Positions 50,974 to 53,884 of a DNA stretch of 64,000 nt are shown in pieces. Position 1 is the first letter of the stretch, and each line of letters opens with the position of its first letter. The position numbers and the translations under genes were made by a program. This DNA comes from Karstenula rhodostoma CBS 690.94 (taxonomy: Eukaryota; Ascomycota; Dothideomycetes; Pleosporales; Didymosphaeriaceae): positions 1,515,601 to 1,579,600 of the forward strand of contig MU001493.1 of assembly GCA_010093485.1 (NCBI GenBank). The letters are read 5' to 3'. The notes beneath the pieces are model-generated. The model had not been told where the DNA came from. It ran no database searches and worked only from the letters and a program-made list of their open reading frames with translations.

Positions 50974-52508
50974 TCAGAGGCCTTCTTTCGCCAACATGTC
51001 TAGATCTAGAGTCAGTCGACGAGTGAAGAGACGGGTGGCGTTTCATGCGATGATATGAGATTTTAGAAGGCGCGTTGTGTCGTGACGCAGTGTCTGTCTG
51101 ACGTACCTGCTATGTCGAGATAGAATGCAACAGCGTTGAAGCTATTCACATCAGCACTTTTAGACTCACACGGCGACACCGAGCGAAAGAAACCCACTTT
51201 CGTTTGCTTCCAGTAAGCTCCCAGAGGAACCACTTCAGGCGGTTGGTCCAATTGATCAGATCCAAGTGGCTAACCCCGACCAATGTGCCTTTGTAATCTC
51301 CCCATTGGCTCGATGCCACACTACGCATGTTAACTCAGCACCCAGCATAGTTAAATGGAGTTCGTACCTGACAAGTCCATCGTTGATCCCGCCTTCCCTC
51401 TGTTTGATGACTGAGTGCGACAGGGCAAATACGGACCAGGACGACGGCTCCAAGCTTGCGCCGTAGGAGTAGTACCTGATATTCGATCAATCGGGAGATC
51501 ATCGAGAAGAAGCACGGGCGCTCACTTGATCCCCTCCACATCTGGTGTCTTGGGATTGAACTCCTCTTTCATATACTTACGCGTCAGTTGGGAGAAAGCA
51601 CCTGTTTCCAGTCCAAAATACTCCATGATTCGGTACAGTCTACGTATTTGGCGGGCTTCTTGGAGTCAGATGGGAGCTCTTAGACGAATAAGCTCACTCA
51701 CGGCCTATGGTATCGAACATGTAGTCCGCGAAAGCACTGCCGCGATGAGGTGTCGCAATAGTCGTCAGCGACAGAATCTTGATATTTCCAGGCTTCAGGC
51801 GACTAATCATGTATCGTGAGTCGAGCCCACTGTAGACAATCAGCTGAGTCCCATCGTCAAGGACGACACCTTTACCCCTGTCAAAGAATCAGCCAAGCTA
51901 CGGTTATGTTCCGTTCTCAATAACGCACCATACTATGCCTACCCCAGGTTAGCATTCCATTCTATACGGTGTTGAAGGGTCCTGTTCTTACGCAATGATG
52001 TTCACGGCCTTTCCTTGCGCTTTCTGTGCTATGTCATCTGCCAACCGCGCAGCTCTAGCCTCGATGCTTCCAGAGGGTGGAACAGCCGCCACGATGACCT
52101 CAATGCCTTTCTCAGCCAAAGCGTCTTTTATGCCTCTCCAATATTGTATTCCCGGGAGGAATTGGCCTGCGAGACGGAGTTCATCGAAGCCTAGGAGGCC
52201 ATGGGCGAGGACAACGGTGTGTTTCTACGTGATCCTTAGGAATCGAGGGACATTTGGAGGCGAATGCGCAACATACGGGGGTATCTGACTGTGTCAGCGA
52301 TTTTCGTTGAGGAAGATGCAAGTTACATACCATATTTTTCCCTCACTACCGCGTATTCGTCCTGGAGGCTACGTCCGATGTCCTGCAGCCGCGGGTCTTC
52401 CTTCCGTGTTTGCGCATTACTGAACGCGCGTCGCACATAGGGTATGAATATGGCGCGATGTGATGTTCGCAGCGAGCAAAGTCTCGCATGGACAATTGGT
52501 CGTATCAT
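50974..52508 (-). CDS. triacylglycerol-lipase-like alpha/beta hydrolase, eleven exons with micro-exons
   Basis: Predicted mitochondrial serine lipase. Exons (minus, 5' to 3'): 52331-52508, 52277-52284 (8 nt), 51992-52224, 51929-51938 (10 nt), 51876-51877 (2 nt), 51702-51829, 51526-51658, 51368-51475, 51198-51320, 51107-51141 and 50974-50999. They total 984 nt, 327 residues. All ten introns are GT-AG, 43-56 nt except the last (107 nt). Seen: a basic N-terminus like a mitochondrial presequence (RPIVHARLCSLRTSHRAIF), oxyanion motif VVLAHGLLGFDELRLAGQ (about 66-83), ALAEKGIEVIVAAVPPSG, nucleophile elbow IIAHSMGGLDSRYM (Ser about 142), LSLTTIATPHRGSAFADYM, TGAFSQLTRKYM, DGLVSVASSQWGDYKG, catalytic-His motif VGVSHLDLINWTNR (His about 285), FNAVAFYLDIADMLAKEGL. 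HSMG depends on the 10-nt and 2-nt exons; the 8-nt exon gives DTP. Confidence 0.88.
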
Positions 52509-53287: not shown

Positions 53288-53884
53288 TCAGTCGCGACCT
53301 CGCGGCGGCTCTGGCTTCGCATTCGAGGCAACCTCGATGAGCTGCTCTACGACCTTGGATCCTGACTTCTTGCCGATGCCGTCAATCTCCTTGACTTTGC
53401 CGTCGGTGTCCTTCTTCGCATCGTCCTCAGCCTTTTGGTTGCCAGAGCTATGCTATAACGCCGTTAACGCACATCTCCTGTACCCGGGTATTTAGTTACG
53501 GACCTCTTTCTCGAACTTCTGAAATTCGTCCTCCTTCTCCTTTCGGTACTCCTCGATCTCCTTCTGCGCTTCGCTTCGGGCGTCTTTCACTCGCTTCGTA
53601 CGGTCTAGTGGGGTCAGCGCAACGACCCAGATGTCTGCAGCGACTGCATACATTCTCTTGCTGCGAATCGTCAGTTACAGGGCAATGCAGTTTGCAGATC
53701 ACGACGTACCTTGCTGCACGATCTTCTGTGCCTCCCGCTCGGCCTGTATCGTGTGTGAGCTGGGTGCATGTGGGAGCGGGCTAGGCGCCTTACGTCAAGC
53801 AGCGTCTGAATTCCTGCGGAATTTTGGGCAGACTATAAGTTGTTAGATCGAGCCTGAGGACACTCGAATCAGCGGACTCACCAT
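53288..53884 (-). CDS. VMA10: V-type ATPase subunit G
   Basis: Peripheral-stalk subunit of the V1 sector, which helps hold the proton pump that acidifies vacuoles. Exons (minus): 53882-53884 (the ATG alone), 53794-53832, 53710-53743, 53652-53660 (9 nt), 53504-53604 and 53288-53452. They give 116 residues, the exact family size. Seen: SAQNSAGIQTLLDAEREAQK, then IVQQAREYRTKRVKDARSEA, EIEEYRKEKEDEFQKFEKE and HSSGNQKAEDDAKK, with a long amphipathic helix and an RP/EPPRGRD tail. The 9-nt exon supplies the AREY stretch shared with the flanking bases and is needed to keep the helix in frame. The last intron uses the donor GTCCGT, weaker than the others. It shares a 168-bp promoter with PET117. Confidence 0.93.

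What the first reader, a model, noticed from the sequence alone, without database searches (positions are those of the whole stretch)
51830..51991. Lipase nucleophile elbow split over 10-nt and 2-nt micro-exons
On the minus strand, exon 3 ends in ...AAC ATC ATT GC. Intron 51939-51991 is followed by a 10-nt exon (gcatagtatg), intron 51878-51928, a 2-nt exon (gg), intron 51830-51875, and then TGGGCTCGAC. Only this joining gives A-HSMGG-LDSRYM, the family's catalytic elbow. Each of the three introns is GT-AG, 46-53 nt, with a branch-like GCTAAC or GCTGAT before the acceptor. A 2-nt exon is too short for ordinary exon definition. The introns are probably removed one after the other, as in stwintrons described in ascomycetes: removing the upstream intron places GG next to the GTAAAG donor. 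Motif and introns are seen; the order of splicing is inferred.
Basis: partly seen in the sequence, partly recalled or inferred. Interest (0 to 1): 0.88.

Follow-up and report, generated by a model that had tools for sequence, protein, structure and literature searches.

The report
Lipase active site in micro-exons
A fungal lipase gene spreads the four amino acids of its catalytic centre over a 10-letter and a 2-letter exon that look shared by two large classes of moulds, and many database copies of the protein lack those amino acids, probably through faulty annotation.

Summary
The minus-strand gene 52508-50974 is an 11-exon TGL2-type triacylglycerol lipase (326 aa; best hit Trematosphaeria pertusa, Pleosporales, 82% identity). 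The strongest new evidence is comparative: annotated relatives often lack exactly HSMG (12 nt = 10 + 2) or carry HSMR/HSMS. The elbow is distorted in 133 of 170 annotated Dothideomycetes and Eurotiomycetes rows, against 0 of 36 Leotiomycetes and Sordariomycetes rows and 0 of 64 rows from contig-only sources. Two Parastagonospora nodorum models differ by HSMG and two substitutions only. So the pair looks conserved and is systematically mis-annotated: 0 of 76 HSMG-less proteins match Pfam DUF676, against 78 of 78 annotated intact ones. The stwintron comparison fails: every donor, branch site and acceptor is complete before splicing, so removal is probably stepwise, but sequence does not fix the order. 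One-nucleotide exons are known in plants. The listings of ten literature searches showed no 2-nt spliceosomal exon in a fungus. No RNA from this organism, and no relative's genomic DNA, was available.

The parts
52331..52508 (-). exon 1 of the lipase gene, 178 nt, from ATG; Arg-rich N-terminus
   Evidence: aligns with P0001 from residue 1
52277..52284 (-). exon 2, 8-nt micro-exon (rest of the D codon, T, P); skipping it shifts the frame
   Evidence: P0001 has ETP at this place
51992..52224 (-). exon 3, 233 nt, ends ...AAC ATC ATT GC
51939..51991 (-). intron 3, 53 nt, GTAAGA...GCTAAC...TAG
51929..51938 (-). exon 4, 10-nt micro-exon GCATAGTATG (end of A codon, H, S, M; S is the predicted nucleophile)
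51878..51928 (-). intron 4, 51 nt, GTGCGT...GCTGAT...CAG
51876..51877 (-). exon 5, 2-nt micro-exon GG (first two letters of the Gly codon after HSM)
51830..51875 (-). intron 5, 46 nt, GTAAAG...GCTGAT...CAG
51702..51829 (-). exon 6, 128 nt, begins T GGG CTC GAC
51526..51655 (-). exon 7, 130 nt
   Evidence: acceptor corrected by comparison with P0001
51368..51475 (-). exon 8, 108 nt
51198..51320 (-). exon 9, 123 nt
51107..51141 (-). exon 10, 35 nt
50974..50999 (-). exon 11, 26 nt with stop (C-terminus DMLAKEGL)
   Evidence: acceptor corrected; same C-terminus as P0001
53288..53884 (-). upstream neighbour: V-ATPase subunit G gene, coding exons 3 (ATG alone), 39, 34, 9, 101 and 165 nt
   Evidence: fused lipase models P0189 and P0244 carry V-ATPase_G

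Best explanation
The gene encodes a TGL2-type triacylglycerol lipase whose nucleophile elbow (A-H-S-M-G-G) is assembled from exon 3, a 10-nt exon, a 2-nt exon and exon 6. Three short, complete U2-type introns are each recognised by intron definition and removed one at a time; neighbouring introns cannot be processed at the same moment because only 2 or 10 nt separate them. The joined message is the constitutive, working one: skipping either micro-exon alone, or keeping any one of the three introns, gives an early stop, and skipping both removes HSMG in frame and so the catalytic serine. The arrangement is old and kept in many Dothideomycetes and Eurotiomycetes, and gene finders often skip it. 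Shown: sequence, uniqueness of the joining, the pattern of database proteins. Inferred: actual splicing in this organism, its stepwise course, and the intron positions in the relatives.
For: One of 65 joinings gives HSMGG; 0 of 20,000 shuffles do. 82% identity to P0001, which has HSMGG. Of 279 distinct homologues from three searches, one search finds 142 intact, 76 lacking exactly HSMG, 23 HSMR or HSMS, 26 other, 12 without anchors (all 12 lack HSMG). The gap product IAGLD is what skipping 10+2 nt gives here. Elbow distorted or unfound in 133 of 170 annotated Dothideomycetes and Eurotiomycetes rows, 0 of 36 Leotiomycetes and Sordariomycetes rows (Fisher p 4e-20) and 0 of 64 contig-only rows. 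P. nodorum P0005 and P0020: 380 identical, 2 mismatches, one gap, HSMG. P0154 (Aspergillus costaricaensis) carries ...LLTLPL-G-VRTRKVYPSIADINQCSS-GLD, which can be read as a pyrimidine tract, acceptor, GG, GTAAGA-type donor, GCTGAT branch site and acceptor; P0211 (A. luchuensis) is similar (my decoding). Of seven skip or retention variants tested, only the double skip stays open.
Against: No RNA from this organism. No genomic DNA of a fungal relative could be read, so the 2-nt exon is seen directly in one genome only. 37 of 170 annotated Dothideomycetes and Eurotiomycetes rows are intact; these may be correctly annotated or may have lost introns. The HSMR/HSMS rows are explained only loosely. 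Class membership of most genera is recalled. Rows share ancestry and annotation pipelines, and the lists show the best 120 of thousands.
Confidence: 0.9

Rival explanations
1. The two introns around GG work as a stwintron-like unit with a compulsory order, upstream intron first.
For: Stepwise removal is almost forced by the 2-nt spacing (inference; PMC4674806 Discussion). Stwintrons are known in ascomycetes, one of them in another lipase gene, lipS (passages).
Against: Both introns have complete, uninterrupted donor, branch site and acceptor; GG is exonic and must stay in the message; the donor context is GGG|GTAAAG before and after the upstream splice. lipS belongs to another family, Pfam07859.
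Confidence: 0.15
2. The micro-exon pair is an alternative cassette: skipping both gives an in-frame, catalytically dead lipase made on purpose, so the HSMG-less database proteins are partly real isoforms.
For: 10 + 2 = 12 nt, and of the variants tested only the double skip keeps the frame open. 76 annotated proteins have exactly this form. Yeast Tgl2 forms dimers and a larger complex, and its serine mutant oligomerises less (PMC11889585, passages). A glucose-controlled micro-exon is reported in Trichoderma (PMC11121469, abstract and passages).
Against: Avoidance of very short exons by gene finders explains the same pattern. Other annotated rows show unrelated in-frame patches such as HSMCSS and HSMIAEHFTKRSS. 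64 of 64 contig-only rows are intact.
Confidence: 0.08
3. The locus is a decaying or mis-assembled copy and the elbow joining is a coincidence.
For: None found beyond the oddity of the structure.
Against: 0 of 20,000 shuffles; all 11 exons open and 82% identity to P0001; no second copy seen in the assembly; the neighbour recurs in fused models of relatives.
Confidence: 0.02

Closest known systems
Single-nucleotide exon of Arabidopsis APC11 and 1-nt exons of plant VPS55
   Same: Ultra-short exon between complete introns, missing from annotations, conserved across a large clade (PMC4674806 abstract and Discussion; PMC8831610 passages).
   Different: Plants; 1 nt; confirmed by RT-PCR, which is lacking here. 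Here the exons carry a catalytic residue.
Adjacent plant micro-exons (5 nt and 12 nt in a rice transcript)
   Same: Two micro-exons next to each other (PMC8831610 passage).
   Different: Sizes and kingdom; here 10 and 2 nt at an enzyme's nucleophile.
One-nucleotide mini-exon between two group II introns in the mitochondrial rnl gene of an Ophiostoma-related strain
   Same: A fungus; two introns separated by almost nothing; stepwise splicing discussed (PMC12308204 passages).
   Different: Organellar group II introns in an rRNA gene, not spliceosomal introns in a coding gene.
Fungal stwintrons (nested spliceosomal introns)
   Same: Ascomycetes, consecutive excision of short U2 introns, errors in auto-annotation (PMC5639578 and PMC12403724 passages).
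   Different: In stwintrons the internal intron splits a splice signal and leaves no exon; here signals are whole and 2 nt are exonic.
Fungal micro-exons: Xlr2 of Trichoderma virens (20 nt) and P450 genes of Phanerochaete chrysosporium (shortest exon 6 bp)
   Same: Micro-exons in filamentous fungi (PMC11121469 abstract and passages; PMC1184071 passages).
   Different: Longer exons; Xlr2's is a switch in a transcription factor; neither is said to carry a catalytic residue in what I saw.
Yeast Tgl2 mitochondrial lipase
   Same: (G/A)XSXG motif with Ser-Asp-His triad; serine mutant inactive (PMC11889585 passages). Here the motif is A-H-S-M-G, and Ser143, Asp263 and His285 (P0001 numbering) are invariant in the 78 annotated intact rows.
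   Different: Micro-exons do not appear in the passages read; yeast Tgl2 itself was not aligned here.

Membership tests
Micro-exon (internal exon, ultra-short class 1-15 nt) | Internal exon of at most 15 nt bounded by complete splice sites | tested here: met
   8, 10 and 2 nt, all bounded by AG and GT
Micro-exon (internal exon, ultra-short class 1-15 nt) | Included in mature mRNA | not testable with these tools
   No RNA from this organism; indirect support from intact proteins of relatives
Micro-exon (internal exon, ultra-short class 1-15 nt) | Conserved in relatives | tested here: inconclusive
   Inferred from annotation errors; no relative's genomic DNA was read
Stwintron | Internal intron interrupts donor, branch site or acceptor of an external intron | tested here: not met
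   The three introns have uninterrupted signals, and 2 nt of coding exon lie between introns 4 and 5
Stwintron | Obligatory order with a splicing intermediate lacking only the internal intron | not testable with these tools
   Needs RNA; sequence does not impose an order
TGL2-type triacylglycerol lipase | (G/A)XSXG motif with catalytic Ser | tested here: met
   AHSMG in the joined message; aligns with HSQGG of the solved lipase-like protein 7cof
TGL2-type triacylglycerol lipase | Asp and His of the triad | tested here: met
   NDG and SHLD motifs; Asp263 and His285 (P0001 numbering) invariant in A2, 22 residues apart as D259 and H281 of yeast Tgl2
TGL2-type triacylglycerol lipase | Mitochondrial location and lipase activity | not testable with these tools
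   Arg-rich N-terminus only

The most novel reading that the evidence does not exclude
The 10+2-nt pair is a conserved on/off cassette: because only the double skip keeps the frame, the fungi make a controlled share of in-frame lipase without its nucleophile, which may join the oligomer as an inactive subunit, so that splicing of a 2-nt exon sets mitochondrial lipase activity.
Probability: 0.08. Interest if true: 0.85.

Novelty: new member of a known kind. Interest (0 to 1): 0.64.

Why it matters
A 2-nt exon at an enzyme's catalytic serine, apparently kept in two large fungal classes, is a natural test of how a spliceosome handles exons too short to be recognised. It also exposes a systematic database fault: annotated copies of this lipase that lack HSMG lose the catalytic serine and the Pfam serine-esterase match (DUF676: 0 of 76 against 78 of 78; within one species, P0020 matches 0 families and P0005 seven), so predictions made from them would be wrong. 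The same error signature, an exact in-frame gap in a conserved motif confined to some classes, could be used to find other hidden micro-exons.

Tried and rejected
Stwintron membership: rejected, splice signals are uninterrupted. Mobile or repeated introns as the source: a 631-bp query over this region has one match in the assembly, itself, so no near-identical copies were seen; diverged copies were not tested. Relatives' genomic DNA: one scan each of viral contigs and genome contigs with P0001 found no relative; metagenome scans have a cap of zero and were not asked for. Second copy with an intact elbow: none seen. My first classification pattern missed P0268 because it reads VSIIA, not VNIIA; it is intact and was counted so. 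My first gene model (the protein used) had two wrong acceptors outside the elbow (GQAR for GPR, an extra LD near the C-terminus), corrected. The split into contig-only rows and into classes was typed by hand from the tables; Vezdaea and Piccolia, which I had put with the Lecanoromycetes, are listed as leotiomyceta incertae sedis. Structure prediction was not run: it would add little to the sequence argument.

Full report
What is there. The window lies in a 44.3-Mb, 29-contig assembly. The protein hits of the gene put it near Pleosporales (Dothideomycetes): the best is Trematosphaeria pertusa, 82% identity over the whole query (lineage). The minus-strand gene runs from 52508 to 50974 and has 11 coding exons of 178, 8, 233, 10, 2, 128, 130, 108, 123, 35 and 26 nt, separated by introns of 46, 52, 53, 51, 46, 46, 50, 47, 56 and 107 nt, all GT-AG; the product has 326 residues. 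Pfam gives DUF676 serine esterase and alpha/beta hydrolase, and a solved alpha/beta hydrolase aligns with HSQGG opposite HSMGG (7cof). One related database protein is named 'Related to TGL2-triacylg...' (P0109). Asp and His of the triad are 22 residues apart, as in yeast Tgl2.

Is it more than chance? With exons 3 and 6 fixed, introns of 35-200 nt and at most three inner exons, 65 joinings are possible, 17 are in frame and open, and one of the 65 gives HSMGG; the next best gives HSMVGLD through another 2-nt exon. In 20,000 dinucleotide-preserving shuffles of the 162 nt, none could be joined to HSMG and 68 to some xSxG insert. Skipping the 2-nt exon, skipping the 10-nt exon, or keeping any one of the three introns gives a stop by codon 152; skipping the 8-nt exon stops at codon 74; skipping both elbow micro-exons gives 322 residues in frame without HSMG.

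What relatives say. No fungal relative's DNA could be fetched, so I read database proteins. Three searches listed the best 120 of 5728, 3072 and 2155 hits (the first scored only the 7998 candidates sharing most words), 279 distinct proteins in all. I classified what stands between the VNIIA-type and GLDSRY-type anchors: 142 HSMG, 76 nothing at all, 23 HSMR or HSMS, 26 other, 12 without anchors; the 12 also lack HSMG. The empty form, IAGLD, is what skipping 10+2 nt gives in this window. By group (genera assigned to classes from memory, five looked up): Dothideomycetes 14 of 69 intact, Eurotiomycetes 23 of 101, Xylonomycetes 0 of 1, Leotiomycetes 28 of 28, Sordariomycetes 8 of 8, and a mixed group of Lecanoromycetes and other lichen-type fungi 5 of 8. 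The three distorted ones in the last group are Lasallia (P0253), Vezdaea (P0261) and Piccolia (P0120); the latter two are leotiomyceta incertae sedis. Rows from contig-only sources (jgi, lgn or ena, no NCBI, nr or UniRef record) are intact in 64 of 64. Distorted or unfound elbows in 133 of 170 (12 of them without anchors) against 0 of 36 give Fisher p = 4e-20, and against 0 of 64 p = 2e-31; rows share ancestry and pipelines, so the p-values are descriptive. The errors are thus confined to some lineages, as expected if those carry the micro-exons and the others do not.

Two details favour annotation error over real loss. First, two Parastagonospora nodorum models, P0005 and P0020, share 380 residues with 2 mismatches and differ by one gap, HSMG. 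Second, P0154 (Aspergillus costaricaensis) contains ...LLTLPLGVRTRKVYPSIADINQCSSGLD...: L-L-T-L-P-L can be read as a pyrimidine tract ending in TTAG, then GG, then GTAAGA, then GCTGAT in A-D, and AG before the T of the next exon; P0211 (A. luchuensis) is similar. That is my decoding of a protein, permissive and not proof, but it would place a 2-nt GG exon at the same position in Eurotiales. Of the 64 contig-only rows, 29 have a longest contig under 2300 nt, and all 29 carry HSMGG; 22 of these 29 have less spare length than this gene's 554 nt of introns. They look like messages; that they are transcripts is inferred, and some may come from lineages without these introns.

Consequence for databases. 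Of the 76 HSMG-less proteins none matches DUF676 or an alpha/beta-hydrolase family in Pfam at E 0.001 (29 match Lip_C only); of the 78 annotated intact ones 78 match DUF676. The intact set holds other classes as well; within one species P0005 matches seven families and P0020 none. The nucleophile of yeast Tgl2, S144, is needed for function (PMC11889585, passages).

Mechanism. Splice-site pairing in ascomycetes follows intron definition (PMC12403724, passages), and each of the three introns is a complete short intron. A 2-nt exon can hardly host two spliceosomes at once, so removal is probably stepwise (inference; same reasoning in PMC4674806, Discussion). The order is not set by sequence: the donor of the 46-nt intron reads GGG|GTAAAG both before and after removal of the 51-nt intron. 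The stwintron label therefore fails on its defining feature, while 'works stepwise like a stwintron' stays possible.

Place in what is known. One-nucleotide exons conserved in land plants and missed by annotation are known (PMC4674806, abstract and Discussion; PMC8831610, passages), and so are neighbouring micro-exons. In fungi I saw a 6-bp shortest exon in P450 genes of Phanerochaete (PMC1184071, passages), a 20-nt switch exon in Trichoderma, whose abstract says functional micro-exons had not been described in filamentous fungi (PMC11121469), and a 1-nt exon between mitochondrial group II introns (PMC12308204, passages). Ten searches of the open-access library (I saw the listings, at most 20 papers each) showed no 2-nt spliceosomal exon in a fungus and no micro-exons in this lipase, with six spellings of '2-nt exon', returned one paper, on HLA-F. 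Most subscription journals are not in that library. I therefore call it a new member of a known kind, with an unusual place (the catalytic serine) and an apparently wide spread.

Surroundings. The upstream neighbour on the same strand is V-ATPase subunit G with an ATG-only first coding exon and a 9-nt exon. Fused database models in Aspergillus hancockii (P0189) and Pseudogymnoascus (P0244) join the same two genes in the same order, so the neighbourhood is shared with relatives.

Noticed in passing
   Followed up: partly
53288-53884: V-ATPase subunit G gene whose first coding exon is ATG alone (3 nt) and whose fourth is 9 nt; two neighbouring genes both rich in tiny exons.
   Followed up: partly
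P0189 and P0244 (database proteins): Lipase models fused to V-ATPase subunit G in Aspergillus hancockii and Pseudogymnoascus, the gene order of this window.
   Followed up: yes
P0068, P0126 and other rows: Homologues carry misleading names: 'T-complex protein 1 subunit gamma' (Venturia inaequalis, P0068) and 'GPI inositol-deacylase' (UniRef names of several Aspergillus rows).
   Followed up: no
51000-51106: The last intron (107 nt) is about twice as long as the others and ends in CTCTAGATCTAG, with two in-frame acceptors 6 nt apart; the farther one matches the C-terminus of P0001.
   Followed up: partly
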